Notes under the pieces: generated by a model | The model's input: only the letters and a program-made list of their open reading frames with translations | Databases searched by the model: none | Told to the model about the DNA's origin: nothing | In this document: positions 47,929 to 64,000 of the stretch, one piece after another | How the letters are laid out: every line of letters starts with the position of its first letter | Numbering within the stretch: the stretch's first letter is position 1 | Assembly: GCF_003002925.1 (NCBI RefSeq) | Contig: NZ_PVTK01000006.1 | Coordinates: 1 to 64,000 of the forward strand | Source of the DNA: Vreelandella songnenensis | GTDB lineage: Bacteria > Pseudomonadota > Gammaproteobacteria > Pseudomonadales > Halomonadaceae | Direction of reading: 5' to 3' | DNA length: 64,000 nt | Position numbers and translations under genes: made by a program

Positions 47929-48095
47929 AAATGTCGGAATCAGCTAATAAGCACGCCTGACGAGCGTTCTGCACGAGTAACCCGCCGTTGGCGAATGCGC
48001 ATACCATAAGAGAAGCCTCTATTATGAAAACGATGCATACTCATACCTTCGAACGAGGCTTGGTGCAATTTTTACAGGTTTCTGCAACGTTTTGA

Positions 48096-48201
48096 TTTTT
48101 ATGTTCTTTAATAATATTGTACTGATCAAAAATTGACCTAAATCGCTGGTGGATTTTCTACTGCCTATTTTTATCTTGCAGAACAGTCATCTACAATTAG
48201 A
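48096..48201 (+). promoter_or_regulatory. Leader of CRISPR array 1
   Basis: An AT-rich 106-base segment ending directly at the first repeat. It shares long stretches with the leader of array 2: CTTTAATAATAT, the words AAATCGC and GGTGGATTTTC, and CTACAATTAGA just before the first repeat. It is expected to hold the array promoter and integration signals. Upstream 47929-48095 contains no gene. Confidence 0.88.
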
Positions 48202-50854
48202 CCGTTCCCCACAGGCGTGGGGATGAACCGTCGCTGGTACTCCGCCGGCGTCACCCCCAAACCCGTTCCCCACAGGCGTGGGGATGAACCGCTTCCGGAA
48301 GCGGCCCATGAATAGCCAGCCAGCCGTTCCCCACAGGCGTGGGGATGAACCGCGTCACGGTCGTTTTGGAACTAATCACGTATCCCGTTCCCCACAGGCG
48401 TGGGGATGAACCGATCATGAAACAATATCGGAAATTCGAACGCACCCGTTCCCCACAGGCGTGGGGATGAACCGTGATTTTGAGCGCCATGTTATGCCTC
48501 GGTTTGCCGTTCCCCACAGGCGTGGGGATGAACCGAGCGTTTTGCTCTGCGTTCTTGCTGAGCCTTGCCGTTCCCCACAGGCGTGGGGATGAACCGCATG
48601 AAACATAAAGACATGCCCTGGCCATTGCCCGTTCCCCACAGGCGTGGGGATGAACCAGATGCCTATAACTGGTCGGTGTCCCGCATCGCCCGTTCCCCAC
48701 AGGCGTGGGGATGAACCGCACGGATAGACGGCCATCCACCTCAACAACCACCGTTCCCCACAGGCGTGGGGATGAACCGACGGATAACGTTCACCAGCTG
48801 CCCCAGACGCCCCGTTCCCCACAGGCGTGGGGATGAACCGCACTCCATCTTGAAAAACGAATCCCACACATACCGTTCCCCACAGGCGTGGGGATGAACC
48901 GCGATCTTGGATGCGTTGGATGGCATGGATCTGCCGTTCCCCACAGGCGTGGGGATGAACCGCCATTAATGGCAGCCTGGTTATTGCCAAGATCCCGTTC
49001 CCCACAGGCGTGGGGATGAACCGTTTTTTCTTTGCATGAAACTCTCCTTAGATTACCGTTCCCCACAGGCGTGGGGATGAACCGCGCTGGAGTGAGTGCT
49101 CATGCTGCCCATACCCCCGTTCCCCACAGGCGTGGGGATGAACCGCACTCCATCACGTAGTATTCATCCCAAGCAAACCGTTCCCCACAGGCGTGGGGAT
49201 GAACCGTCAAGCTCGTCGTGAACAGTCAAGCGCGGCACCCGTTCCCCACAGGCGTGGGGATGAACCGCAGGGCAGCCACAACAAAATAGACGGGGCCGTC
49301 CGTTCCCCACAGGCGTGGGGATGAACCGTCGGCCATGGCGTCTTCGACGAACTCGGGAAGCCGTTCCCCACAGGCGTGGGGATGAACCGGCCGTAAGTAC
49401 GGCGTAGCTGTGTCAATCTTCCCGTTCCCCACAGGCGTGGGGATGAACCGGCTGTAGAAACCCAGCTAATAGCTATTGGAGTCCGTTCCCCACAGGCGTG
49501 GGGATGAACCGCCGGCAGCGACAGCGGTCTTTCCAACATGGGTCCGTTCCCCACAGGCGTGGGGATGAACCGTCGTCCGGGTCGGTGTTGTCGTTGGCGT
49601 GCGCCCGTTCCCCACAGGCGTGGGGATGAACCGTGCGTAAACGTCGCGATGCCCTAATGCTCCGACCGTTCCCCACAGGCGTGGGGATGAACCGCGCCCA
49701 TGGTCTTACGTTTTTCATCGCCAGTCCCGTTCCCCACAGGCGTGGGGATGAACCGCGCTGGAGTGAGTGCTCATGCTGCCCATACCCCCGTTCCCCACAG
49801 GCGTGGGGATGAACCGCAGCAGCACGAAGACGAGCTGGCGCGCATTGACCGTTCCCCACAGGCGTGGGGATGAACCGAATTCCTCGAGGTTTTGCGTCGT
49901 CAGCGGGACCCGTTCCCCACAGGCGTGGGGATGAACCAGTCGCTTGAGCGCCGAGGCTGGAAACGCCTAGCCGTTCCCCACAGGCGTGGGGATGAACCGA
50001 CTGAACAGGGTAGCCAGTACGTCATCAACGACCGTTCCCCACAGGCGTGGGGATGAACCGCCATCTATAAGCGCAAAGCGCAGGAAGCAGAACCGTTCCC
50101 CACAGGCGTGGGGATGAACCGACCCGGCCAGTCTGAATTTTTACAATCCTACGCCGTTCCCCACAGGCGTGGGGATGAACCGCAGAGCCAGCGCACGCTA
50201 TACCCCTAATCCAACCGTTCCCCACAGGCGTGGGGATGAACCGCGCTTGGCGTATCTTCGCCATTTCTTCCCGGTCCGTTCCCCACAGGCGTGGGGATGA
50301 ACCTTCACGGGAGGAGGTTAGCCTCATGACCACGACCCGTTCCCCACAGGCGTGGGGATGAACCGCTTGTCTAGCTCTTCATATACCGGATCGGTTTTCC
50401 GTTCCCCACAGGCGTGGGGATGAACCGCTGATTGAGGTGATCGTCAAGGATCAGCGCTGCCGTTCCCCACAGGCGTGGGGATGAACCGCGTGCGGTATCT
50501 GTGAGTCTTGCAATGCCGGGCCGTTCCCCACAGGCGTGGGGATGAACCGCGGGGGGCGCATGCCCTTGTACTCGATAACGTCCGTTCCCCACAGGCGTGG
50601 GGATGAACCGTACGTGGTTCACGGCAACGGCACGAAAACGCTCCGTTCCCCACAGGCGTGGGGATGAACCGCGCTCAGCGATCTGGCCGCGCAACTGAAG
50701 CGCCCGTTCCCCGCAGGCGCGGGGATGAACCGGTGCTGCGCGCCATCTCCGAAACCATCACCTTCCGTTCCCCACAGGCGTGGGGATGAACCGGCTTCGG
50801 GTTTTCAAAGGGCAGTGCAAAACTGCCGCTCCCCGCCGGCACGGGGATGAACCA
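48202..50854 (+). CRISPR. CRISPR array 1, type I-E: 44 repeats, 43 spacers
   Basis: 29-base repeats on a 61-base period (32-base spacers; the spacer after 50365 is 33). Repeat form: starts CCGTT, stem CCCCAC/GTGGGG with loop AGGC, then handle ATGAACCG. Same direction as the cas genes, leader at the left. Odd repeats: number 42 (50704) has the array 2 stem (CCCCGC/GCGGGG); number 44 (50826) is degenerate and marks the trailer; numbers 8 (48629), 29 (49910) and 35 (50276) end in A, A and T instead of G. One spacer occurs twice (49085 and 49756). Confidence 0.98.
49085..49116 (+). repeat. CRISPR spacer 15, identical to spacer 26
   Basis: The 32-base spacer starting CGCTGGAGTGAGTGC is repeated exactly at 49756-49787, eleven repeat units (671 bases) later. 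The neighbouring spacers are not duplicated. Confidence 0.95.
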
Positions 50855-51032: not shown

Positions 51033-51065
51033 ATTTTATTGATCATGTACGAACAAGGGAAAAGG

Positions 51066-51248
51066 GTGAAAAGCAAGGATGTAATCAAGGAGATGGAGGC
51101 CGATGGGTGGTATCTAGACCGTGTTAGCGGGAGCCACCACGTATTCAAGCACCCTACCAAACCCGGCAGCGTGCCCGTTCCTCATCCGAAAAAGGATTTG
51201 CCCAAGGGCACTATCCACAATATCAGGAAACTCGCGGGGCTCAGGTAG
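51066..51248 (+). CDS. hicA: HicA-type toxin (mRNA interferase)
   Basis: 60 residues from GTG 51066, selected because the next residues KSKDVIKEMEADGWYLDRV match the usual HicA start; ATG 51045 would add seven residues. The motif GSHHVFKHP contains the catalytic His of the dsRBD-like HicA fold, followed by VPVPHPKKDLPKGTIHNIRKLAGL, fully typical. HicA cleaves mRNA when not held by HicB. It sits between CRISPR array 1 and cas3, which is unusual, and is followed by hicB after 23 bases. Confidence 0.92.
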   Translation: MKSKDVIKEMEADGWYLDRVSGSHHVFKHPTKPGSVPVPHPKKDLPKGTIHNIRKLAGLR

Positions 51249-51271
51249 CCCGGGCGTTCAGGAGGTAGATC

Positions 51272-51676
51272 ATGCAATATCCGATTGCTATCGAATGGGG
51301 CGATGAGCGCACCGCCACCGGTATCGTCATTCCGGATATTCCCGGGGCTGTGACAGCAGGTGACACGACCGAACACGCCTATGAAATGGCGGTGGAAGTG
51401 GCCCATATCCAGCTGGAAGAATTAGCCAACGAAAATAAAGATATTCCTATGCCCCGCAGCATTGCGGAGCATCGTAAAAATCCGGAGTTCGAGGGGTACG
51501 GCTGGGGGATTATCGACATTGATATCACGCCCTACCTCGGCAAAACCGAAAAGGTGAATGTGACGTTGCCAGGCCACGTCATCCGCCAGATCGACAAGTA
51601 CGTTAGTACTCACGGTATCAAAAGCCGCTCTGCGTTCATTGCCTCGGCGGCGTTGGAAAAGCTGACCCACGCGTAA
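51272..51676 (+). CDS. hicB: HicB-type antitoxin
   Basis: 134 residues with a strong AGGAGG site before the ATG. The N-terminal HicB fold covers residues 1-70 (YPIAIEWGDERTATGIVIPDIPGAVTAGDT), the part that binds HicA, and the C-terminal half is a ribbon-helix-helix DNA-binding domain (VNVTLPGHVIRQIDKYVSTHG, SRSAFIASAALEKL). It neutralises HicA and autoregulates the pair. An excellent terminator follows at 51743, which isolates the module from cas3. Confidence 0.92.
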   Translation: MQYPIAIEWGDERTATGIVIPDIPGAVTAGDTTEHAYEMAVEVAHIQLEELANENKDIPMPRSIAEHRKNPEFEGYGWGIIDIDITPYLGKTEKVNVTLPGHVIRQIDKYVSTHGIKSRSAFIASAALEKLTHA

Positions 51677-51773: not shown

Positions 51774-52128
51774 CATGATGACGCAACGCGTTCACCCAAC
51801 GGTCGTTTTGGACCTTCCCTTCAACTTGTAGACACGCTATCGTCGGTTTTGGTCAGTTCGCTAATTTTACTGAGCGAGCGTGGCTGTCATCCTGATCAAG
51901 GGAGAATGTTCTGGCCATGCCGACTCGATCTTCACGTTTGCCGGTCTATCACCGCTATGCCGGCAAGGCCCTGCCGGGGCAGGCGGGAGATGCTTGCCAT
52001 CTGCTGGCCTGCACGACCACGTCAAGCTCTCTCACGCCTTCCAGGAGGTGCTGAGTATATGGCCAAGTCGCAAGGCGAATCCTTTAGGCGCTACACAAGC
52101 CGACGCGCAGAAAGGGGGCGTGAAAATC
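51774..52128 (+). promoter_or_regulatory. Region upstream of cas3 with an in-frame extension and a short leader ORF
   Basis: About 355 bases between the hicAB terminator and the cas3 start. The cas3 frame stays open back to 51880, but that part does not resemble Cas3. A 27-codon ORF (52059-52142, MAKSQGESFRRYTS...) has a strong AGGAGG site ten bases before its ATG and overlaps the cas3 start by 14 bases, in a different frame, so it may act as a translationally coupled leader peptide. The cas3 promoter must lie in this stretch. Confidence 0.5.
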
Positions 52129-54792
52129 ATGCCAGTAGATAGTTTTTCCAGCCTGTCAGTAGCTGCGCGAAGTCTATGGTCGAAAAGCGCCATTGAGGGG
52201 CCTGGGCATAATCTTTTAGCGCACATGCTGGACGTGGCTGCAGTGGTGGAAACGCTGCTCGAACGAGAATCACAGAAAAGCCTGAGCTGGGCCAGTCAAG
52301 CGCTTGGTCTGCCGCAGGAAGGCTGTATTCGTTGGATCGCTGCCATTGCCGGATTGCACGATTTTGGTAAGGCCATACCGGGCTTCGTGCTCAAGTGGCC
52401 GGTAGGCCACGCGCGTGCTCAAGCTGCAGGTCTTGTTTTCCCGGGCCGGGCAGAAGCGCGCAGCAATCATTCACTGGCCACCGCAGCCCTTCTGGCAGAG
52501 CCGCTCAGCGAGCTGACACGGGCGCCATGGGGGTGGGTGCGGGCGGTCGTGCAGGCGATCGCTGCCCATCACGGCCGCCATTTTCGCGCGGATGAGACAG
52601 GGCGTGGGCGGCCTGTAGGCGAGCCTCCCGAGTGGGCAAGAGCGCGTCGCGAGATACTCGATGTGTACTGGCAGACGCTGAATCCTCAAGGGTGTCCGAG
52701 TCACGAGGACCTGGATCTGGTCGCGGTGAACTGGCTGGCCGGTTTGACCAGTACCGCAGATTGGATCGCGTCCAATGTGGAGTGGTTCGCGCTCGGCGAG
52801 CGTCATGACGACCTGCACGAGTACTACGAGCACGCACGCTCGCTCGCTGTGGTTGCATTGGCGAATGCCGGTTGGCCGCAGTTTCGCCAGCTTTTGACTG
52901 AATCTATCAAGACGGAGACCCTGCTTGGCCGTATCCGCGGCAAACCGACGGCACCGCGCCCGTTGCAGCAGGTCGGTGAGGCGCTGCTTCAAGACGCGCG
53001 TGGGCCTACCTTGCTGCTTGTTGAAGCACCGATGGGCGAGGGCAAGACCGAGTTGGCCTACCTGGCTTATCTGCGTTTGCAAGCTGCGAACGCGCATCGC
53101 GGACTTTATGTTGCCTTGCCCACCCAGGCGACCGGTAATGCGCTTTTCGACCGCACCCAGGCGTTTTTGAAGGCTTTCGACGACACCACGACCGTGAAGC
53201 TTGTCCATGGTGGTGCGGCAATGAGCGAGCAGCTGCGTCATTTGCGCGGCATCGCGCACGACAAGCAGGAGACCGTCTCGGCCTCGGTCTGGTTTTCCCA
53301 GCGGCGTCGGCCATTGCTGGCGCCGTACGGTGTGGGCACGGTCGACCAAGCGCTGCTCGGGGTACTCAATGCTAAACATCATTTTGTGCGGTTGTGGGGG
53401 TTGGCGAACCGCGTGGTCGTGCTGGATGAAGTGCACGCCTATGACACCTATACCAGCGTGTTGATCGAGGCACTTGTACGTTGGCTCAAGGCCATGGGGA
53501 GCTCGGTCGTACTCATGAGCGCGACCCTGCCAAAAAGCAAGCGCGATCGACTGGTGCGGGCCTGGGGTGCCGATCCACAGGAAGTGCCGGAAACTAATTA
53601 TCCGCGCCTAACGAAAATCGACGCACATCCGATTCGCTGCGAGACGTTCGAAAGCCGGCCGCAGGCCCCCATTACCCTGCATGGCCTCGACGAGTCGTTG
53701 GAGACTATCAAGGACCAGACGATCGCGTTGCTCGAAGAGGGCGGTTGCGGCGCGGTGATCGTCAATACCGTCGATCGTGCTCAGCAACTGTTCCAATTGC
53801 TGAAATCGCACGCAAAAGAAAACGGCACTGAGATAGTACTGTTTCATGCACGGTTTCCCGCAGATCAGCGTGCAGAAATCGAAAAGCGCGTGCTCACTCT
53901 TTTTGGCGAATCAGCAAGTGTTGATGACGGGACTCGGCCGGGAAAGGGAGTGCTGATCGCCACGCAAGTGGCCGAGCAATCGCTAGATCTGGACTTCGAC
54001 TTCATGTTGAGCGATCTCGCACCCATCGATTTGCTGCTACAGCGGGCTGGCCGCATGCATCGTCATGACCGGGAGCGACCGGCCGCGCACGTGCAGGCAC
54101 GCTTCTGGATTGCAGGACTGCATTACGATCGTTTGCCGTCGCTCAAGGAAACCGCCTGGGAATATGTCTATGACCCACTCGTGCTGGGGCATACCTGGGC
54201 CTGTCTACGCGAACGGGAAACGCTGCAGTTACCGACCGATATCGATGTGCTCGTCCAACATGTCTACAGCTTTCCGGAGTTGTCGACCTCGATCAGCGAA
54301 CAGATTCGAGACTTTTTAGAGATCGAATCCTACGGCGCGCATCTTGGGGTCGAGAAGGGCAAGCACCAATTGGCGATCGATATCTCGCTCGACCCGGAGG
54401 ATGAGCCGGCCCGCGCCTACCAGAACAAGCCGTTCGGCGGTGATGATGAAGAGGGCATGCGTAACGTGACCCGGCTGGGCCCGGATTCGGTGACTCTTGT
54501 GCCGATCGATGTGATCGACGGTGCGTGGACGGTAGACGGTACGGCCATCGATCCAGCGCAAATACCCTCCGACGATGTCGCACGCCGCCTCTATACCCGT
54601 CAGCTGCGCGTATCGCGCAAGTCGGTCGTGCTGCATTGCCAGCAGAGTGAACTGCCTTTGGCGTTTGCAGATCACCCGTTGCTGCGACATCTCCACCCCA
54701 TGCCTATGGTAGAGAGCCACTGCGAATTAGGTGGGCAGTCGCTCTATCTGGATTCGGCTCTGGGACTCGTTTACGCAGCGGGTGAGAAGTGA
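52129..54792 (+). CDS. cas3: Type I-E CRISPR helicase-nuclease Cas3
   Basis: 887 residues from ATG 52129 (AAAGGGGG ten bases upstream); GTG 52120 is an in-frame alternative. The N-terminal HD nuclease has GHNLLAHMLDVAAV near 28-41, IAGLHDFGKAIPGF near 76-89 and AIAAHHGRHF near 145. The SF2 helicase follows: Walker A EAPMGEGKTELAYL near 300, box II VLDEVHAYD near 430, SATLP near 465, TQVAEQSLDLDFD near 610 and LQRAGRMHRH near 640. A C-terminal domain follows. Cas3 is recruited by Cascade after target binding and degrades the DNA. Length is normal for type I-E (E. coli 888). It is separated by 203 bases from cas8e. Confidence 0.96.
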   Translation: MPVDSFSSLSVAARSLWSKSAIEGPGHNLLAHMLDVAAVVETLLERESQKSLSWASQALGLPQEGCIRWIAAIAGLHDFGKAIPGFVLKWPVGHARAQAAGLVFPGRAEARSNHSLATAALLAEPLSELTRAPWGWVRAVVQAIAAHHGRHFRADETGRGRPVGEPPEWARARREILDVYWQTLNPQGCPSHEDLDLVAVNWLAGLTSTADWIASNVEWFALGERHDDLHEYYEHARSLAVVALANAGWPQFRQLLTESIKTETLLGRIRGKPTAPRPLQQVGEALLQDARGPTLLLVEAPMGEGKTELAYLAYLRLQAANAHRGLYVALPTQATGNALFDRTQAFLKAFDDTTTVKLVHGGAAMSEQLRHLRGIAHDKQETVSASVWFSQRRRPLLAPYGVGTVDQALLGVLNAKHHFVRLWGLANRVVVLDEVHAYDTYTSVLIEALVRWLKAMGSSVVLMSATLPKSKRDRLVRAWGADPQEVPETNYPRLTKIDAHPIRCETFESRPQAPITLHGLDESLETIKDQTIALLEEGGCGAVIVNTVDRAQQLFQLLKSHAKENGTEIVLFHARFPADQRAEIEKRVLTLFGESASVDDGTRPGKGVLIATQVAEQSLDLDFDFMLSDLAPIDLLLQRAGRMHRHDRERPAAHVQARFWIAGLHYDRLPSLKETAWEYVYDPLVLGHTWACLRERETLQLPTDIDVLVQHVYSFPELSTSISEQIRDFLEIESYGAHLGVEKGKHQLAIDISLDPEDEPARAYQNKPFGGDDEEGMRNVTRLGPDSVTLVPIDVIDGAWTVDGTAIDPAQIPSDDVARRLYTRQLRVSRKSVVLHCQQSELPLAFADHPLLRHLHPMPMVESHCELGGQSLYLDSALGLVYAAGEK

Positions 54793-54995: not shown

Positions 54996-56600
54996 ATGAC
55001 AGACACGAGCGATAGTACTTTGGCGTGGGCTGAACTTCCTATTCCGGCCTATGACCTGCTCCGAGAACCTTGGTTGTCTGTCCGCCTAACAGATGGCACG
55101 GTTACCTCAATGGGGCTGCTCGAAACGTTCGAGCGTAGCCAAGAAATCGTGGCGTTGGCCGACACCGCACCGCCGAGTGTCGTGGCGCAATACCGGTTAC
55201 TGCTGGCGATCACTCATCGTGCCCTCACCATGGCGCAAGGGCGTTGGCGAGAGTCCGAGCGGGCCGAGTGGTACCGAAGCGGTCTGCCCGTCGATGCGAT
55301 ACGCGCGTATCTTGAGCACTGGCAAGAGCGTTTCTGGCTGTTTCACGATACCCACCCGTTCATGCAGGCGGCCGTTCTGGATATGGCCGGGCCCACCCGC
55401 GATAAACTCAAGAGCGTGGCGCAAATATCGTTGGCGAGCGCGACCGGCAATACGCCCGTGGTGTTCGACCACGCCTATGACAGCGAGCCGGCAGAAGTCA
55501 CACCGGCCCAGGCGTTGAACACGCTGCTCGGGTTTCTGCAATTCACGCCCGGCGGGCTGGTCAAGGTGTTTCGTGGTTCGGACAAGGCCGGTGCACTGGC
55601 CAATACGGCGGCGGTTATCCCCTTGGGCCAGACGCTTGCAGAGACGATCGCGCTGGGGCTTCACCCGGATGGGCGCCGCTCGAACGCGGAGTCGGATCTC
55701 CCCAGCTGGGAGCGCGAACCGCTCACCGAGAAACAGCTCGCCGGTGAGCCGGTCTTCGCCACGGGACCGAACGATCGCTACACGCGCCAGAGTCGAGCTG
55801 TGCTGTTCAAGCGAGAAGACAACGGCAATATTCGCTGGCTGCGTTTCGGAGCCGGGTTGGCCCTGGGCGACAGTGAGACCCAGCCCGACCCAATGGCCAG
55901 CTTTCGGCCCGGTCACAACGGCCCCGTGCGCATCAGCTTTACGGAGGGTCGTGCGACGTGGCGCGATTTACCCGCGCTCGTTCCCGGGCCTGCGACCGTA
56001 ACTGAAAACCAGCGTCCCGCAGCGGTCATCGCGTACGCCGCAAGTCTGCATCAAGCACTGGGGCCCGGCTCAAACCGCTATCAGCCGCTGTTGGTGGCCG
56101 GGTTGGCCAGTGATCAGGCCAAACTGCTGCGCTGGCGTATGGAGCAGGTCGTGCTGCCCGCCAGCCTGATGGTCGACCCTGACCGCTCCGAAACTCTCCA
56201 AGAGAAAGTGGCGGATGCCGAAGCGCTCTACAAGGCGTTGCGAGCGCTCGCAGGCGCGATGCTCGCCGATAGCATGCCGGATCCGGAGAACAAGGAGACA
56301 AAGGCCCGCGCTCAAAGCTTGCTGGCGGCCGGGCCACTGGTGCCCACCTATTTCGCAACCGCAGAGCGTGCCTTGTCCACGCTGATGGCAAAGCTTGCCG
56401 CTGACGAATTCGAAGCTGCAACAGGTCACTGGAATGCTGTACTGCGTGACGCGGCCCAACGTGGCTGGCGCGATGTGGTTGCGGGGTTGGGCAGCACGCC
56501 GCGCGGACTGCGCGCAGAAGCCCGGTACTATCCGCGCCTGCTGGGTCTGCTCACCAAATATGCGCCCAAGCCAGTCCCCGCCGCAGGAGAAAAGCCATGA
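54996..56600 (+). CDS. cas8e: Cascade large subunit Cas8e (Cse1/CasA)
   Basis: 534 residues. Cse1-type N-terminus: AYDLLREPWLSVRLTDGTV near 18-36, ALADTAPPSVVAQYRLLLAI near 50-70, FWLFHDTHPFMQAAVLD near 112-128, and LLGFLQFTPGGL near 180. The C-terminal region (from about 390) is the helical bundle typical of the family, with ALYKALRALAGAML. Cas8e recognises the PAM and starts R-loop formation. It begins a tight operon (cas8e-cse2-cas7e-cas5e-cas6e-cas1e-cas2e); its stop overlaps cse2 by four bases (ATGA). The 203 bases upstream are AT-rich and probably hold a promoter. Confidence 0.93.
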   Translation: MTDTSDSTLAWAELPIPAYDLLREPWLSVRLTDGTVTSMGLLETFERSQEIVALADTAPPSVVAQYRLLLAITHRALTMAQGRWRESERAEWYRSGLPVDAIRAYLEHWQERFWLFHDTHPFMQAAVLDMAGPTRDKLKSVAQISLASATGNTPVVFDHAYDSEPAEVTPAQALNTLLGFLQFTPGGLVKVFRGSDKAGALANTAAVIPLGQTLAETIALGLHPDGRRSNAESDLPSWEREPLTEKQLAGEPVFATGPNDRYTRQSRAVLFKREDNGNIRWLRFGAGLALGDSETQPDPMASFRPGHNGPVRISFTEGRATWRDLPALVPGPATVTENQRPAAVIAYAASLHQALGPGSNRYQPLLVAGLASDQAKLLRWRMEQVVLPASLMVDPDRSETLQEKVADAEALYKALRALAGAMLADSMPDPENKETKARAQSLLAAGPLVPTYFATAERALSTLMAKLAADEFEAATGHWNAVLRDAAQRGWRDVVAGLGSTPRGLRAEARYYPRLLGLLTKYAPKPVPAAGEKP

Positions 56601-57667
56601 CCTCCCATGCAGGCAAATTCGTCGCTTATCTCGAAGCGCTGAATGAAAAAAATCGGGGAGCCATTGCCCGGCTACGCCATAGCCTGGCGCAGCCGATCGG
56701 CGAAGATCCAAACGCGGTGGCGATTGTCGAGCGTTTCGTAGGCACAGAGCGCGACGTGGACGACCCGTATCGACAGGCGCTGTATCTCATCGCAGGTCTT
56801 TACGCGAATCATCCGAAACAATCAGGTACCACGCTTGCCGAAGCCTTCGGCGCGCTTTGGCGCGAGCGACACAATCCGAGCATAGAGCAACGTTTTATCG
56901 TTCTGCTGGAATCCGACGAGCAGCAGCTTGCGGTACGCCTGCGCCAGGCCATAGCGCTGCTCGCGTCAGACGATTACGGCTTTAATTACGTCCAGCTCAT
57001 GGCAGATATCGCGTTGTGGCTAGATCCCTTCAGGAAAGAGTACCGGTGGCAGGCGATGCGCCAGCGCTGGGGCCGCGAGTTCTATGGTGCGGCGCTTGCC
57101 GGTCAAGACGTTCAAAGTGACTCTGAGGCGTTAAAACAGCATCTGCTGGCGCTCGCGAACAATGAGTCCCCTGTACTATCTCGTCTGCGACGAAGCCTGA
57201 CGCTGCCGCCCGGGGAAGACCCTGCGGTTTTCCCATCAGTGGAGCCTTTTGTTGACCCCGCATGGGAAAGCGGCGATTCGAGAAGACGCGCGCGCTACCT
57301 CGTGGCAGGCCTTTTCGCGTGCCATTCGAAATACGAACCAGATCGTACTCTGGCTGCTGCACTCAGGTTGGCTGCGCAGGAAAAAAACAAGGCAGAAAGT
57401 GTCGAGCGTCGTTTCATCACGGTGCTGGGCGCCTCGGGTGACACCATTGCTGATCATCTGCGTCAGGCGGTGGCTTTGATTCGTGATACCCAGATCGGCT
57501 ACGACCCCGCCCTTTTAATCAAGGATATGGAGGTCTGGCTGGCGCGCACGCCGAATGTGGAACGCCTCGATCGATGCCGCCAGCGCTGGGCACGGGATTT
57601 CTACTGGGCCGCGCGTAGCGACGAACACGACCCCCAATCCGAAACAACACAAGAGCAGGTGACTTGA
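56597..57667 (+). CDS. cse2: Tandem double Cse2 (Cas11e/CasB) in one polypeptide
   Basis: 356 residues, about twice a normal Cse2 (160-200). Two homologous halves are offset by 171 residues. Half 1 has ARLRHSL (24-30), PIGEDPNAVAIVERFV, YLIAGLYANHPKQ, IEQRFIVLLES, LRQAIALL and MRQRWGREFYGAA. Half 2 has SRLRRSL (195-201), PPGEDPAVFPSVEPFV, YLVAGLFACHSKY, VERRFITVLGA, LRQAVALI and CRQRWARDFYWAA. Both keep the whole domain, and the frame between them is continuous. Cse2 forms a dimer on the belly of Cascade and stabilises the R-loop; this gene appears to supply both copies as one chain. It sits at the usual cse2 place, coupled to cas8e (ATGA) and nearly overlapping cas7e. Confidence 0.92.
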   Translation: MTSHAGKFVAYLEALNEKNRGAIARLRHSLAQPIGEDPNAVAIVERFVGTERDVDDPYRQALYLIAGLYANHPKQSGTTLAEAFGALWRERHNPSIEQRFIVLLESDEQQLAVRLRQAIALLASDDYGFNYVQLMADIALWLDPFRKEYRWQAMRQRWGREFYGAALAGQDVQSDSEALKQHLLALANNESPVLSRLRRSLTLPPGEDPAVFPSVEPFVDPAWESGDSRRRARYLVAGLFACHSKYEPDRTLAAALRLAAQEKNKAESVERRFITVLGASGDTIADHLRQAVALIRDTQIGYDPALLIKDMEVWLARTPNVERLDRCRQRWARDFYWAARSDEHDPQSETTQEQVT

Positions 57668-57669
57668 GC

Positions 57670-58812
57670 ATGCGTGCATTCCTCGAATTTCACATCATCC
57701 AGAACTTCGCGCCGTCCAATCTCAACCGCGACGATACCGGCGCGCCCAAGGACGCGATCTTCGGCGGCCATCGTCGTGCGCGGGTGAGCAGTCAATGCTT
57801 CAAGCGGGCTACCCGATTGGCGGCAGCGCAGTACGATCTCATTGACGAAGCTCATCGTGGTATTCGTACCAAGCGGCTCAAGCGGCTGCTCATGGAGCGT
57901 CTGACCAACCGCGATCCCGAAGAAGCGGCTGGAAAGATTGAAAGCGCGCTGGCGGCGGCCGGCCTGAGTTTGTCCAAAAAAGATAAGGACAAGACCGAAT
58001 ATCTGCTGTTTCTCGGTGAGAAGGAAATCGCCGGGTTCGCCGAGCTGGTCGATCAGCACTGGGATGAGCTGGCCGATGTCGATGCGGCGGCCAACAAGAA
58101 ACAACGCAAGGCCTCAGCCCCCCCGGAAGTCACGAAAAAGGCCAAAGCGTTGCTTGACGGTGGCAAGGCGGTTGACATCGCTCTGTTCGGACGCATGCTC
58201 GCCGATCTGCCGTCCGTGAATCAGGATGCGGCGTGCCAGGTGGCTCACGCCATCAGCACCCATCGCGTCGAGCGCGAATTTGACTATTACACGGCGGTCG
58301 ATGATCGTGCGCCGGATGACAACACTGGCGCAGACATGATCGGTCAGGTCGAGTTCAACTCGGCGACCTTGTATCGCTACGCCGTGCTCGATATTCACAA
58401 GCTATTTCAGAATCTTCAGCAGGATCGAGAGCTTGCCCTGTCGGCTGTTGAAGCGTTCGCGACTGCGTTCGTGCGTGCCATGCCCAGCGGCAAGCAGAGC
58501 TCATTCGCGGCCCATAACGCGCCGGACTTCATTGGTGTGAGCCTTCGCCACGTGGCGCCCATGAGCCTGGCCAACGCCTTCGAGAAGCCGGTAGTCGCCG
58601 ACCTGCGTGCATCGTTGACCGAACAATCGGTTGAACGCTTGCACAAGGCCGATGAGAAGCTATCTGCCGTTTACAGCGACGGTCAGGATCAGTGGCTCTA
58701 TCTGGATCTCACCGGGAAATGGCCAGAACAGGGCCGTGGCGAAGCGCAAGCCAACCTGAGCCAGCTTGCCCAGCGTGTGCGTGAATTTGCAGACGACGCG
58801 CTGGAGGCATAG
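57670..58812 (+). CDS. cas7e: Cascade backbone subunit Cas7e (Cse4/CasC)
   Basis: 380 residues from ATG 57670, about eight bases after AGGTGA; a TTG at 57664 overlapping the cse2 stop is an alternative. Cas7e hallmarks: FLEFHIIQNFAPSNLNRDDTGAPKDAIFGGHRRARVSSQCFKRA at residues 4-47 and NQDAACQVAHAISTHRVEREFDYYTAVDD near 190-215, with FSAA-like SSFAAHNAPDFIGVSLRH near 275-295. Six copies line the crRNA in Cascade. The segment near 105-165 is basic and Lys-rich, which is normal for the thumb region. Confidence 0.95.
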   Translation: MRAFLEFHIIQNFAPSNLNRDDTGAPKDAIFGGHRRARVSSQCFKRATRLAAAQYDLIDEAHRGIRTKRLKRLLMERLTNRDPEEAAGKIESALAAAGLSLSKKDKDKTEYLLFLGEKEIAGFAELVDQHWDELADVDAAANKKQRKASAPPEVTKKAKALLDGGKAVDIALFGRMLADLPSVNQDAACQVAHAISTHRVEREFDYYTAVDDRAPDDNTGADMIGQVEFNSATLYRYAVLDIHKLFQNLQQDRELALSAVEAFATAFVRAMPSGKQSSFAAHNAPDFIGVSLRHVAPMSLANAFEKPVVADLRASLTEQSVERLHKADEKLSAVYSDGQDQWLYLDLTGKWPEQGRGEAQANLSQLAQRVREFADDALEA

Positions 58813-58814
58813 CC

Positions 58815-59489
58815 GTGGCGACATTGCTGATGTGCCTGGCGGGCCCCATGCAATCCTGGGGGACGACCAGCCGATTCGACGAACGCGATACGCAGCTCGA
58901 ACCCTCCAAGTCAGGTGTGCTCGGCTTGGTGTGCGCCGCACTTGGCCGCGATCGGACAGCGCCAATCGACGATCTTGCAACCTTGCGCATGGGGGTTCGT
59001 GTCGATCGCGAAGGTATTCCGATGCGCGATTATCAAACCGCTACGGGTGTAATCGCCTCATCCGGCAAGGTTGACGCCAACCGAACCGTTGTCAGTCAGC
59101 GCTACTACCTGTCGGACGCCGTTTTTCTCGTCGCGCTCGAAGGTGAGCGCGAGCTGCTGGCGCATATTCACGAGGCCCTGCGGACGCCGTACTGGCCATT
59201 GTCGCTGGGCCGCAAGAGTTTTATACCGTCTCGTCCGGTATTCATGCAGGACGGTCTGCACGAGGGTCGTCTTTTAGATGTGCTGGGATCGGCCGCGCTA
59301 CTCACCGACCACGGCACGCGCCAAGATGCAGAGCAGCGACGCGTTGTCCTCGAAGATGCCGATGAAGGCACCATTCGGGTCGATCAACCGATCGCTCCAT
59401 TTTCCGAGCGCCGCTTTGGACCTCGTTTCGTCAAGACACTGCAACTGACGCCAGGGGGTGGTGATGCATCTCACTCGACTCACGCTTGA
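58815..59489 (+). CDS. cas5e: Cascade subunit Cas5e (CasD)
   Basis: 224 residues from GTG 58815, with GGAG upstream and two bases after the cas7e stop. Cas5-type start: LLMCLAGPMQSWGTTSRFDERDTQLEPSKSGVLGLVCAALG at residues 4-44, where the QSWG and the SKSG(V/L)LG motif are diagnostic. Later RQRYYLSDAVFLVALEGE-type strands and PLSLGRKSFIPSRPV near 130-145. Cas5e caps the 5' handle of the crRNA. Its end overlaps the cas6e start by 26 bases. Confidence 0.95.
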   Translation: MATLLMCLAGPMQSWGTTSRFDERDTQLEPSKSGVLGLVCAALGRDRTAPIDDLATLRMGVRVDREGIPMRDYQTATGVIASSGKVDANRTVVSQRYYLSDAVFLVALEGERELLAHIHEALRTPYWPLSLGRKSFIPSRPVFMQDGLHEGRLLDVLGSAALLTDHGTRQDAEQRRVVLEDADEGTIRVDQPIAPFSERRFGPRFVKTLQLTPGGGDASHSTHA

Positions 59490-60066
59490 TCGCCGTAATG
59501 CGAGCGTCAGGCGGGATCTGGCCGATGCGTATGAAATGCATCGATCATTGGTACGAGCCTTCGTAAGCAACCCTGAGGACAAGCCACCACGCTTTTTATG
59601 GCGATTGGAACCCGATTCGGAGCGACGGGGCCCCATCATTGTCGTTCAGTCGCCTGTTCAGCCTGACTGGTCGGTCTTCGAGACGTCCGGCTATCTGAAA
59701 GCGCCGGTAGAGTCCAAAAATGTCGACGTCGATCGAATTCTGACAGCGGGAGGGAGATATCGATTCAGGCTGTTTGCCAATCCCACGGTGACGCAAGCTG
59801 GAAAAAGAATCGGGCTCGCCAGTGAAGCGCTGCAGTGTCAGTGGTTGGATCGCCAAGCCGCTAGGGCCGGCTTTAACGTAGAAACAGCGCTGGTGATGGC
59901 CACAGAAATGCTCGATGTTCGAAAGGGCGACATTCGTTTACGACAGGCGTGGTTTGAAGGCGTACTGTCCGCTCTTGACGCCGCTCTGCTGAAAAATGCG
60001 ATCGAACAGGGGGTCGGCCCCGGTAAGGCTTTCGGGCTCGGCCTGCTAAGTATTTCCCCACGATGA
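59464..60066 (+). CDS. cas6e: crRNA endonuclease Cas6e (CasE)
   Basis: 200 residues from ATG 59464 (GTG at 59458 and 59461 also in frame, AGGGGG just upstream). RAMP fold: an N-terminal strand HLTRLTLDRR, then LADAYEMHRSLVRAF (residues 18-32) with Tyr and His at the catalytic positions known for Cas6e, and a C-terminal Gly-rich loop GVGPGKAFGLGLLSI. It cuts each repeat below its stem-loop to give the 8-base 5' handle, here ATGAACCG. It must process two repeat versions with different stem base pairs. Confidence 0.95.
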   Translation: MHLTRLTLDRRNASVRRDLADAYEMHRSLVRAFVSNPEDKPPRFLWRLEPDSERRGPIIVVQSPVQPDWSVFETSGYLKAPVESKNVDVDRILTAGGRYRFRLFANPTVTQAGKRIGLASEALQCQWLDRQAARAGFNVETALVMATEMLDVRKGDIRLRQAWFEGVLSALDAALLKNAIEQGVGPGKAFGLGLLSISPR

Positions 60067-60076
60067 TGAAAATGCC

Positions 60077-61295
<1,219 letters not shown>

Positions 61296-61298
61296 CTG

Positions 61299-61405
61299 TT
61301 TTTGATGCTCTTTAATAATATAGAGCTGTTCAAAAAATGATCAAAATCGCCGGTGGATTTTCCGCTGGCGATTTTTCTTTTTGAAAACAAGTGACTACAA
61401 TTAGA
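61299..61405 (+). promoter_or_regulatory. Leader of CRISPR array 2
   Basis: AT-rich, 107 bases from just after the cas2e stop to the first repeat. It shares with leader 1 TCTTTAATAATAT, AAATCGC and GGTGGATTTTC, and CTACAATTAGA at the repeat junction. It holds the array promoter and the integration site. High similarity of both leaders implies that one Cas1-Cas2 complex can feed both arrays. Confidence 0.9.
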
Positions 61406-64000
61406 CCGTTCCCCGCAGGCGCGGGGATGAACCGTGGTCGCTGGTCTCGCGTGAGATGTTCGCATGCCGTTCCCCGCAGGCGCGGGGATGAACCGCAATG
61501 ATCGGCTTTGGCATAGGCCTGCTGATCCCGTTCCCCGCAGGCGCGGGGATGAACCGGGATGTTTCGGGCCCCCCCCGCATTCAAGACTCCGTTCCCCGCA
61601 GGCGCGGGGATGAACCGCCCCGTCGCGCTGACGTTGTACGAGCGTCCGCCCGTTCCCCGCAGGCGCGGGGATGAACCGCGTACGGCAGGCGTTAGTCTAG
61701 CTCCTATACGCCGTTCCCCGCAGGCGCGGGGATGAACCGCTCGATCGCGGCTTGATTAGCGAGTAGTGCATCCGTTCCCCGCAGGCGCGGGGATGAACCG
61801 CGCGGCACCGGCACATAAAGCGAACCCGCCATCCGTTCCCCGCAGGCGCGGGGATGAACCGCGACTGATGCTAATCACGCCGCTTGGCTTGCCCGTTCCC
61901 CGCAGGCGCGGGGATGAACCGTTACGGACTAAACCGCATTAGGGTAACAGCGCCCGTTCCCCGCAGGCGCGGGGATGAACCGATACCGGCGTTCAGCACA
62001 CAGCCAGCTGAACCCCGTTCCCCGCAGGCGCGGGGATGAACCGTCAGATGCATATGCGCGGCAGGTGTACCAGGTCCGTTCCCCGCAGGCGCGGGGATGA
62101 ACCGTTGCCCTCGCTGAGCTGCTTGGGAATGTCCACCCGTTCCCCGCAGGCGCGGGGATGAACCGCAGGAAACGATGCCGCGACCCGCTGAAATGCCCCG
62201 TTCCCCGCAGGCGCGGGGATGAACCGCTTTTCGATGATCGCGCCGTTCACGTCGAGGTCCGTTCCCCGCAGGCGCGGGGATGAACCGGGTTTTGAACGGT
62301 TTTGAACGCACTTTGATATCCGTTCCCCGCAGGCGCGGGGATGAACCGAGTACGACCGTGTAGTTCTTACAGCCGGATATCCGTTCCCCGCAGGCGCGGG
62401 GATGAACCGGGCTGGCGTTTGAGCGCCAGCCCTTGAATACCCCGTTCCCCGCAGGCGCGGGGATGAACCGGATTGGAGTTTGATCATTCGAGGACCTCGA
62501 TCCCGTTCCCCGCAGGCGCGGGGATGAACCGCGCGCAGGCCGGTAGGCCGGAGGGAGAGGGATCCGTTCCCCGCAGGCGCGGGGATGAACCGTCAGCGCG
62601 CAGTTTTCCATCCTGAAATGCCAGCCGTTCCCCGCAGGCGCGGGGATGAACCGTCATGGTGCTATCCCCCGGCGGCGACCTCGCCCCGTTCCCCGCAGGC
62701 GCGGGGATGAACCGCCACCCAGTCGATGGAGCGCAAGGCCGAGATCCCGTTCCCCGCAGGCGCGGGGATGAACCGTCGGCGGCGAGCCCTAAACGGTGCG
62801 CGCTGGTCCCGTTCCCCGCAGGCGCGGGGATGAACCGCGCCCCACCCAGGCCGCTTTCAATGAGCTGCACCGTTCCCCGCAGGCGCGGGGATGAACCGGG
62901 CGGGGGTGTCCATAGCGTCATTAGACGACTCCGTTCCCCGCAGGCGCGGGGATGAACCGCTTTTGGTGACAGCTTTATGGCCCTTGCGTCGCCGTTCCCC
63001 GCAGGCGCGGGGATGAACCGGCCTGCTGGCCCGCATTGCCGAGCTTGAGGAGCCGTTCCCCGCAGGCGCGGGGATGAACCGTAATTTCCTACTCTGCTAT
63101 AGGGTTTGGTCATCCGTTCCCCGCAGGCGCGGGGATGAACCGCTGACTGAATCGCGGTGAAGGGCCGGTAATCACCGTTCCCCGCAGGCGCGGGGATGAA
63201 CCGACGTAGCAGCCCATGTCGCCGCTGATGCACAGCCGTTCCCCGCAGGCGCGGGGATGAACCGCGTACTCTTTCCGGAAACGGCTTTCTTGGCGGCCGT
63301 TCCCCGCAGGCGCGGGGATGAACCGCTTGAGGTGGTGGCCGTTGGCCGCGGCGACAACCGTTCCCCGCAGGCGCGGGGATGAACCGACCGCGTGCGCGTG
63401 CTGCTGGAGGCCATGCCGCCGTTCCCCGCAGGCGCGGGGATGAACCGTGCTTACGGTTCGCGCCCCTGAGGGCTGGGACCCGTTCCCCGCAGGCGCGGGG
63501 ATGAACCGCCGGTTTGATTGCTCAATCTACTGCCGCGCAACCGTTCCCCGCAGGCGCGGGGATGAACCGCCAGGCTGTAGAGTCGGTAATGAGTTCAGAT
63601 TCCGTTCCCCGCAGGCGCGGGGATGAACCGGAATGGGGCGCCGAATGGCAGACCACCGACGCCCGTTCCCCGCAGGCGCGGGGATGAACCGGAAAAGCCT
63701 GTCACATGGGAGGCACCCATGCTCCGTTCCCCGCAGGCGCGGGGATGAACCGACGTCAACATCGGCTGGCTGCAGTAGTACCGCCCGTTCCCCGCAGGCG
63801 CGGGGATGAACCGCTCAAGCACGTCGACACGCTGACCGACATCCACCGTTCCCCGCAGGCGCGGGGATGAACCGTCGCATGGTTGTAGGCTTCGTCGGTG
63901 GTTTCACCGTTCCCCGCAGGCGCGGGGATGAACCGCCACTAATCAATGCTGTTGGCACTTCAGAAGCCCGTTCCCCGCAGGCGCGGGGATGAACCGTTGT
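61406..64000 (+). CRISPR. CRISPR array 2, type I-E: 43 repeats in view, continues past the window
   Basis: 29-base repeats on a 61-base period with 32-base spacers (spacer 8 at 61862 is 31, a later one is 33). All repeats appear identical: start CCGTT, stem CCCCGC/GCGGGG, loop AGGC, handle ATGAACCG. Compared with array 1, two stem positions differ (A to G, T to C) and still pair. The last visible repeat starts at 63968 and four bases of the next spacer follow, so the array runs on. It lies directly after cas2e and its leader, the canonical place. Confidence 0.98.

What the first reader, a model, noticed from the sequence alone, without database searches (positions are those of the whole stretch)
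56597..57667. Cse2/Cas11e is a tandem duplication: a covalently linked Cse2 dimer in Cascade
The single cse2 gene codes for 356 residues with two complete Cse2 domains offset by 171 residues (paired motifs ARLRHSL/SRLRRSL, GEDP...ERFV/GEDP...EPFV, YLIAGLYANH/YLVAGLFACH, RQRWGREFY/RQRWARDFY). Canonical type I-E Cascade carries two separate Cse2 subunits (established). Here one chain would contribute both, fixing stoichiometry and order along the R-loop. I do not know of a described Cascade with a fused Cse2 pair. The halves have diverged (roughly a third or more identical by eye), so they may be specialised for the two positions.
Basis: partly seen in the sequence, partly recalled or inferred. 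Interest (0 to 1): 0.9.

Follow-up and report, generated by a model that had tools for sequence, protein, structure and literature searches.

The report
Fused double Cse2 in CRISPR Cascade
A bacterial CRISPR immune complex that normally carries two separate copies of one small protein here has a single gene coding for both copies in one chain; the arrangement has been kept by natural selection in a small lineage and should make the two positions separately testable.

Summary
The cse2 gene (56597-57667, +) encodes 356 aa with two complete Cse2 domains, each far above Pfam's cut-off and 38% identical to each other. It is not a sequencing or frame-join error: the same gene sits at the same operon position in three Salinisphaera genomes (81%, 66% and 55% identical). 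In each of the four genomes it is the only Cse2 found, beside one cas7e. Both halves evolve under purifying selection, and they separated before the four genes diverged. The second half models as Cse2 (Z 21 to Thermus Cse2). Spacers are the ordinary 32 nt, so the complex should have two Cse2 sites, which one chain can fill. I infer a linked head-to-tail Cse2 pair, half 1 next to Cas6e and half 2 next to Cse1; no complex was purified. Of 91 genomes with a Cse2 match in five family searches (one phylum), only these four have two domains. My text searches of open papers found no fused Cse2. Whether it arose by duplication in place or by joining two cse2 genes is open. The same cas1-cas2 type also serves quite different effector modules in both genera, so modules were exchanged. 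New variant of a known kind.

The parts
56597..57667 (+). fused cse2 (casB), 356 aa, two Cse2 domains
56663..57085 (+). half 1: first PF09485 domain (inferred to take the Cse2.1 site, beside Cas6e)
   Evidence: 89.3 bits; 2zca E 2.9e-21
57095..57118 (+). short linker between the last helix of half 1 and the first helix of half 2 (about residues 167-174)
   Evidence: the limits are approximate
57176..57604 (+). half 2: second PF09485 domain (inferred to take the Cse2.2 site, beside Cse1)
   Evidence: 91.1 bits; 2zca E 3.1e-20
51880..54792 (+). cas3 (HD + helicase)
54996..56600 (+). cse1/casA, overlaps the start of cse2
57670..58812 (+). cas7e (in-frame ATG at 57670, 3 bases after the cse2 stop, as in L005 and L006; the ORF list gives TTG 57664)
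58815..59489 (+). cas5e
59458..60066 (+). cas6e
60077..60997 (+). cas1e (90-91% to two same-genus loci, 84-85% to the Salinisphaera fused loci)
60999..61295 (+). cas2e
48202..50793 (+). CRISPR array 1, 43 repeats by my pattern, 61-nt period
61406..64000 (+). CRISPR array 2, 43 repeats in the window by my pattern; it ends within about 100 bases beyond the window

Best explanation
The gene encodes a natural, covalently linked Cse2 pair. One chain folds into two Cse2 domains that lie head to tail along the belly of one type I-E Cascade and fill the two sites that two separate Cse2 subunits fill in E. coli. The N-terminal half most likely takes the Cse2.1 site, next to Cas6e, and the C-terminal half the Cse2.2 site, next to Cse1, because in a head-to-tail pair whose second member points its C-terminal domain at Cse1, the first member's C-terminus should face the second member's N-terminus. 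The fusion fixes the Cse2 ratio and order, ties together the movement of the two subunits when the R-loop locks, and has let each half change for its own site. Shown: two intact domains, conservation, selection on both halves, one Cse2 gene and one cas7e per genome, normal spacer length. Inferred: stoichiometry, polarity, coupled movement and specialisation.
For: Two full domains. Half 2 modelled with pLDDT 83.5 and nine helices; best matches are Cse2 of Thermus (Foldseek E 1.2e-7; VIA Z 21.4, rmsd 2.3 over 156) and, with weaker Foldseek E-values (2e-4 to 0.1), Cse2 chains inside Cascade structures such as 5u0a, 6c66, 5h9f and 4tvx. Four genomes carry it: window, S. shabanensis E1L3A, Salinisphaera sp. 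NP40 and G888, which the tool puts in the same genus as those two. PF09485 finds nothing else in these four genomes, and PF09344 finds one cas7e in each of 4 of 4. dN/dS is 0.09-0.21 for half 1 (6 pairs) and 0.12-0.19 for half 2 (5 pairs; dS saturated in the sixth). The position aligned to E. coli R101, a Cas7-anchoring residue (PMC5965380), is R in 8 of 8 halves. 81 of 84 window spacers are 32 nt, giving the 61-nt crRNA unit of the E. coli system with six Cas7 and two Cse2 (PMC5965380, passages). No start codon near the linker is common to the genes (codons 120-204 scanned in three of the four; G888 seen as protein). 13 positions are fixed differently in the two halves, and the Asp found in 9 of 9 single Cse2 proteins of the same branch is Ser in all 4 second halves. 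Geometry: head-to-tail dimer, Cse2.1 touching Cas6e, C-terminal domain of Cse2.2 touching Cse1 (PMC5965380).
Against: No biochemical evidence. The model of the whole fused chain failed (pLDDT 35.3), so the domain arrangement is untested. The position aligned to E. coli R27, the other Cas7-anchoring residue, is His in 4 of 4 first halves (but also in two single Cse2 proteins). The position aligned to E. coli E150, which touches Cse1 in Cse2.2, is Arg in both halves (8 of 8), so it gives no support to the polarity. The E. coli residues quoted for the non-target strand (R53, R110, 142, 143) are mostly not conserved in either half, nor in the close single relatives, so the alignment to E. coli cannot test that role; position 142 is K in the K-12 protein, where the review says R. 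Fixed differences are few and rest on four related sequences. dS is above 1 in most pairs, so the dN/dS values are rough.
Confidence: 0.8

Rival explanations
1. The long protein is only the main reading: an internal start or a protease releases one half, so that Cascade holds separate subunits, much as other type I systems make Cas11 from inside cas8.
For: Internal translation of a small subunit is reported in an archaeal I-B system and non-canonical small subunits in I-C (PMC11899642, PMC7684278; titles and starts of abstracts in the listing; that I-C and I-D use internal starts is recalled). An in-frame ATG at codon 154 is shared by three of the four genes, and S. shabanensis has a GTG at codon 193 behind an SD-like stretch.
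Against: Codon 154 lies inside the last helix of half 1 and has no good ribosome-binding site; the fourth gene has no Met there. The GTG at codon 193 is in one gene only. The spacing WxRxFY to WxRxFY stays at 173-178 residues, and the frame is open in 4 of 4.
Confidence: 0.1
2. Only one half of each chain binds the Cas7 backbone and the other does something new; two chains per complex, four Cse2 domains.
For: Half 2 has lost an Asp kept in 9 of 9 single relatives, and half 1 has lost an Arg (position 58) kept in at least 8 of 9.
Against: Spacer length, and so the expected number of Cas7 and Cse2 sites, is ordinary; the R101 equivalent is kept in both halves; both halves are about equally conserved.
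Confidence: 0.06
3. Origin by joining two different cse2 genes (one acquired) and not by tandem duplication. This changes the history, not the mechanism.
For: In the best tree half 1 groups with single Cse2 proteins of Ideonella and two other genomes while half 2 sits apart on a long stem; holding the halves together costs 13.9 log-likelihood units.
Against: The one-clade tree is not rejected (p-AU 0.151); faster change of half 2 after a duplication gives the same picture; a long-branched row (L040) sits in this part of the tree, and the forks there have support of 85-89/87-98 only.
Confidence: 0.3
4. Artefact: sequencing error or assembly join of two separate genes.
For: None found.
Against: Same architecture in four genomes, the other three 55-81% identical to the window protein.
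Confidence: 0.005

Closest known systems
Single-domain Cse2/CasB (Cas11e) of type I-E Cascade, Thermus/Ideonella/Edwardsiella branch
   Same: Pfam family, fold, place in the operon, Cas7-anchoring Arg (R101 equivalent), partner genes (Cas7 67-69% identical in the operons of G203, G195 and Ideonella)
   Different: There one gene gives one domain, and two identical chains assemble (E. coli: PMC5965380); here one chain holds two non-identical domains
Type III-Dv effector with double Cas7 (Cas7-2x) and Cas7-Cas5-Cas11 fusions (PMC11026444, passages seen)
   Same: Repeated effector subunits fused into one chain, giving fixed copy number; the paper suggests that equal stoichiometry may explain its fixed crRNA length
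   Different: Type III, RNA-cleaving; the fused repeats are Cas7, not small subunits; linkers of about 20 residues; one Cas11 domain in the fusion
Small subunit fused to or made from the large subunit in other type I systems (I-C Cas8 in PMC5965380, passage; I-B Cas11b in PMC11899642, abstract start)
   Same: Variation in how the small subunit is supplied
   Different: There the small subunit comes from or with cas8; here two Cas11e domains are joined and cse1 is a separate gene

Membership tests
Cse2/CasB family (PF09485, TIGR02548) | Match to the family model above the curated cut-off | tested here: met
   PF09485: each half about 90 bits against 24.6; TIGR02548: whole protein 145 bits against 28.5, two stretches
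Cse2/CasB family (PF09485, TIGR02548) | Cse2 fold (four plus five helices, PMC3727216 passage) | tested here: met
   half 2: (nine helices, Z 21.4 to 2zca). Half 1 by sequence only: 2zca E 2.9e-21
Cse2/CasB family (PF09485, TIGR02548) | Arg residues that anchor Cse2 to Cas7 (E. coli R27, R101) | tested here: inconclusive
   R101 equivalent kept in 8 of 8 halves; R27 equivalent is R in 4 of 4 second halves and H in 4 of 4 first halves, as in two single Cse2 proteins
Cse2/CasB family (PF09485, TIGR02548) | Stand-alone subunit of under about 200 residues, present as two identical chains | tested here: not met
   356 aa, two unlike domains, only Cse2 gene found in the genome. It is therefore filed as a two-domain variant of the family, not as an ordinary member
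Type I-E CRISPR-Cas | cas3, cse1, cse2, cas7e, cas5e, cas6e, cas1e, cas2e in order | tested here: met
   same order in three Salinisphaera loci
Type I-E CRISPR-Cas | About 29-nt repeats with 32-nt spacers (61-nt crRNA) | tested here: met
   81 of 84 spacers 32 nt, two 33, one 31
Type I-E CRISPR-Cas | Cascade with Cse1:Cse2:Cas7:Cas5:Cas6e = 1:2:6:1:1 | not testable with these tools
   needs a purified complex; one fused chain would give one chain with two Cse2 domains

The most novel reading that the evidence does not exclude
A type I-E Cascade whose two small-subunit sites are no longer equivalent: a single chain supplies a heterodimeric belly in which half 1 is adapted to the Cas6e-side (R-loop-locking) site and half 2 to the Cse1-side site, with the linker coupling their slide on target binding. 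It would be a natural step from a multi-copy to a fixed-copy effector in type I, parallel to the Cas7 fusions of type III-Dv.
Probability: 0.5. Interest if true: 0.65.

Novelty: new variant of a known kind. Interest (0 to 1): 0.55.

Why it matters
In ordinary Cascade both Cse2 copies come from one gene, so a mutation hits both sites at once. A natural linked pair lets each site be mutated alone and makes the separate roles of Cse2.1 (proposed R-loop locking) and Cse2.2 (contact with Cse1) directly testable. It is also a case of fusing repeated effector subunits in a type I system, which in the papers I saw is described for type III (III-Dv, III-E), and gives a smaller parts list for type I tools.

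Tried and rejected
Artefact was rejected by three further genomes. A common fusion was rejected within reach of the tools. PF09485 at E <= 0.001 was found in 30 of 390, 13 of 85, 26 of 398, 24 of 303 and 5 of 289 genomes; some genomes were drawn more than once. These lists hold 91 different genomes (counted); 4 of the 91 have two matches, both in one frame each time. Two of the 91 are doubtful: G094 is below the curated cut-off, and G507 (24.7 bits, in an 851-codon frame) gets only 8.6 bits from the model that I built here. Single matches in long open frames (270 codons or more) among the loci that I held were checked with that model: 11 distinct genes, one Cse2 domain each (L044/L088 and L061/L089 are the same genes). 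Other searches: the fused protein against 97 relatives matched only the window and a 20-bit stretch with three stops in G012; the three-row alignment against 369 genomes of the class matched 5, two of them full length (window, NP40) and three single. The plasmid collection has 27 records with a relative; for all 27 the best place is annotated casB and the matched stretch is at most 552 bases, so single. The census is limited: the genome searches reached a sample of one phylum, the scan of genome contigs used six short patterns (2 relatives), and metagenomes were not searched.

AlphaFold of the whole fused chain with three rows failed (pLDDT 35.3). Only half 2 was then modelled with six rows; two of five models are good (83.5, 75.9; the others 45.3, 39.8, 38.7). 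Half 1 was not modelled. Two scans of viral contigs found no relative.

Mapping E. coli residues R53, R110, K142, R143 and E150 onto the halves told nothing, because they are not conserved in the close single-domain relatives either. Net charge of the halves did not separate them clearly from the single Cse2 proteins of the same branch. The CRISPR pattern was wrong and matched nothing; it was corrected. In one search some ORFs (L026, L042, L049, L061, L063) were read on the wrong strand and were corrected before the tree.

Rows dropped: the tree holds 59 rows (8 halves, 51 single domains). Left out of it were L004, L031, L035, L064-L078 and the hits first seen. The alignment used 19 of the 51 single rows, and the fixed-difference comparison used 9 of them (the same branch). 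One search used 16 operons, and its concatenated tree left out cse1, cse2, cas1 and cas2.
Full report
What is there. The window carries a complete type I-E CRISPR-Cas locus between two arrays: cas3 51880-54792, cse1 54996-56600, cse2 56597-57667, cas7e, cas5e, cas6e, cas1e and cas2e to 61295, all on the + strand. The cse2 gene encodes 356 aa. Pfam CRISPR_Cse2 matches twice; cut in two, the halves score 89.3 and 91.1 bits against a cut-off of 24.6, each along almost the whole profile. The halves share 61 of 162 residues (38%), E 4e-28. By sequence both halves match the solved Cse2 of Thermus thermophilus (2zca; E 2.9e-21 and 3.1e-20).

Not an artefact. A scan of species genomes found the same architecture in Salinisphaera shabanensis E1L3A and Salinisphaera sp. 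NP40 (81% and 66% identical, query residues 1-354), and a family search added G888, which the tool places in the same genus (55%). In each of the four genomes PF09485 finds only the two domains of this one gene, and cas7e is found once (4 of 4). The operon order is the same in all four loci.

How rare. Five family searches (390, 85, 398, 303 and 289 genomes, with some genomes in more than one) found 91 different genomes with a Cse2 match at E <= 0.001, two of them doubtful; four have two domains. In the genus of the Salinisphaera genomes 3 of 14 have the fused gene, 2 have a single Cse2 of a distant branch and 9 have no match. Eleven single matches in long open frames hold one Cse2 domain each. 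All 27 plasmid records with a relative look like single casB genes. The searches make the fused form rare in the sampled part of one phylum and say little about others.

History. In a tree of 59 Cse2 domains the four second halves form one clade (100/100) and the four first halves another (99/74); the split between first and second halves is 100/100, and both clades have the same branching order. So the two halves were already distinct in the common ancestor of these genes. First halves lie among single Cse2 proteins (Ideonella plasmid, G203, G195), while second halves sit on a longer stem (0.73 against 0.18). One clade for all eight is not rejected (p-AU 0.151). Tandem duplication with faster early change of the second half, and the joining of two cse2 genes, both fit. 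In a concatenated tree of cas3, cas7, cas5 and cas6e from 16 operons the four fused loci form one clade (100/100), next to the Ideonella, G203 and G195 operons (81/99), with G888 branching first and the window beside S. shabanensis plus NP40. The Cse2 halves instead put the window next to S. shabanensis, so the order within this trio is unsettled.

Both halves are in use. Pairwise dN/dS (Nei-Gojobori, own script) is 0.09-0.21 in half 1 (6 pairs) and 0.12-0.19 in half 2 (5 pairs; dS saturated in the sixth, and above 1 in most). Thirteen alignment columns are fixed for one residue in all first halves and another in all second halves. An Asp (D107 in half 1) found in 9 of 9 single relatives is Ser in 4 of 4 second halves, while an Arg at position 58 of half 1, kept in at least 8 of 9 single relatives, is Tyr or His in 4 of 4 first halves. 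This is what specialisation would look like, but with four related genes it is a hint.

Structure. The whole chain could not be modelled (pLDDT 35.3). Half 2, with six rows, gave pLDDT 83.5 and nine helices. Foldseek ranks Cse2 structures first (2zca_A, E 1.2e-7), with Cse2 chains of whole Cascade structures behind (5u0a, 6c66, 5h9f, 4tvx; E 2e-4 to 0.1). VIA-align gives Z 21.4, rmsd 2.3 over 156 residues for 2zca_B and Z 13-17.5 for Cse2 chains within Cascades, with the remaining listed folds below 4. So half 2 is a Cse2 domain.

How it most likely works. In E. coli two Cse2 chains lie head to tail along the Cas7 backbone; Cse2.1 touches Cas6e, the C-terminal domain of Cse2.2 touches Cse1, each contacts three Cas7 subunits through R27 and R101, and the dimer moves by about 16 A on target binding (PMC5965380, passages). 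The C-terminus of Cse2.1 should then face the N-terminus of Cse2.2, so a direct N-to-C fusion with a short linker (about 8-12 residues) fits the complex with half 1 by Cas6e and half 2 by Cse1. This is an inference from the text; I had no coordinates of the dimer. Spacers in the window are 32 nt in 81 of 84 cases, and repeat spacing in the Salinisphaera loci is mostly 61 too (40 of 45 intervals in L079, 64 of 72 in L081, 22 of 30 in L005, gaps across the operon included). The crRNA is therefore ordinary, with two Cse2 sites to fill: one fused chain suffices, two would be too many. The R101 equivalent is present in 8 of 8 halves; the R27 equivalent is Arg in second halves and His in first halves, as in two single relatives; the E. 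coli E150 that meets Cse1 is Arg in both halves, so it does not tell the polarity. An internal start that would free half 2 is not supported: the one shared candidate (codon 154, three genes) is inside a helix, lacks a good ribosome-binding site and is missing from G888; a GTG at codon 193 with an SD-like stretch occurs in S. shabanensis alone among the three genes scanned.

What is known. Text searches for fused, tandem or duplicated Cse2 and related words showed no report of a linked Cse2 pair (open-licence PMC papers only). I saw the listings of these searches and passages of four papers (PMC5965380, PMC3150331, PMC3727216, PMC11026444); none was read whole. Closest in kind is type III-Dv, whose Synechocystis effector contains a double Cas7 and a Cas7-Cas5-Cas11 fusion and no repeated subunits (PMC11026444). 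Small subunits made from or with the large one are known in other type I systems (PMC11899642 and PMC7684278, title and abstract start; PMC5965380 passage). A fused Cse2 pair is thus a new variant of a known part, with a clear use: each Cse2 site can be altered alone.

Module exchange. The window's cas1, cas2 and leader (60077-61417) align at about 76% DNA identity with the I-E loci of two same-genus genomes, starting at the cas1 start codon, while the effector genes of those loci are only distantly related (Cas7 34-35%). Single-Cse2 Salinisphaera loci show the same: Cas1 82-87%, Cas7 35-37%. So one kind of cas1-cas2 serves two very different effector modules in both genera. Cas1 of the window is closer to its own genus (90-91%) than to the Salinisphaera fused loci (84-85%), which suggests that the fused effector module joined a resident adaptation module; Cas2 does not separate the two (89-92% against 82-91%), and over the whole operon the window aligns with S. 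shabanensis at 77-79% DNA identity, cas1 included. In the Cas1 tree the window's exact place is an open fork, nearest by path to its own genus. The window genome and the Salinisphaera genomes belong to different orders of one class, so a horizontal transfer is likely; the direction is inferred only from the nesting of the window inside the Salinisphaera set.

Limits. No complex, no expression data, four related genes, one modelled half, one phylum sampled.

Noticed in passing
window 60077-61417: cas1 is 90-91% identical to that of two same-genus loci whose effector genes are only distantly related (Cas7 34-35%), while all effector genes belong to the fused lineage: likely exchange of effector modules on a shared adaptation module. 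Cas2 does not separate the sources.
   Followed up: partly
window 48050-48231 and 61253-61435: The leader of array 1 (139 nt at 81%) and a 24-nt scrap resembling the 3' end of cas2 are repeated from the cas2-array 2 junction, so array 1 looks like a copy of the array 2 locus; repeats of the two arrays differ by a few bases.
   Followed up: no
window 49056-49147 and 49727-49818: One spacer with its repeats occurs twice within array 1, identical over 92 nt; 83 of 84 window spacers are different.
   Followed up: no
window 51045-51676: A hicA-hicB toxin-antitoxin pair (PF07927, PF15919) lies between array 1 and cas3.
   Followed up: partly
L094 8933-9848: In the Edwardsiella tarda plasmid locus the cas1-like sequence lies in two open frames and is not in the listed genes (the gene table of that collection leaves out pseudogenes), so cas1 there may be broken.
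   Followed up: no
window 59458-60066: Cas6e of the window is much less like that of the three other fused loci (56-62%) than Cas7 (83-87%) or Cas1 (84-85%) is, perhaps following changes in the repeat.
   Followed up: no
L004 1501-1719: A same-genus genome (G012) has a 20-bit match to half 2 with three stops inside; it may be chance or a decayed fragment.
   Followed up: no
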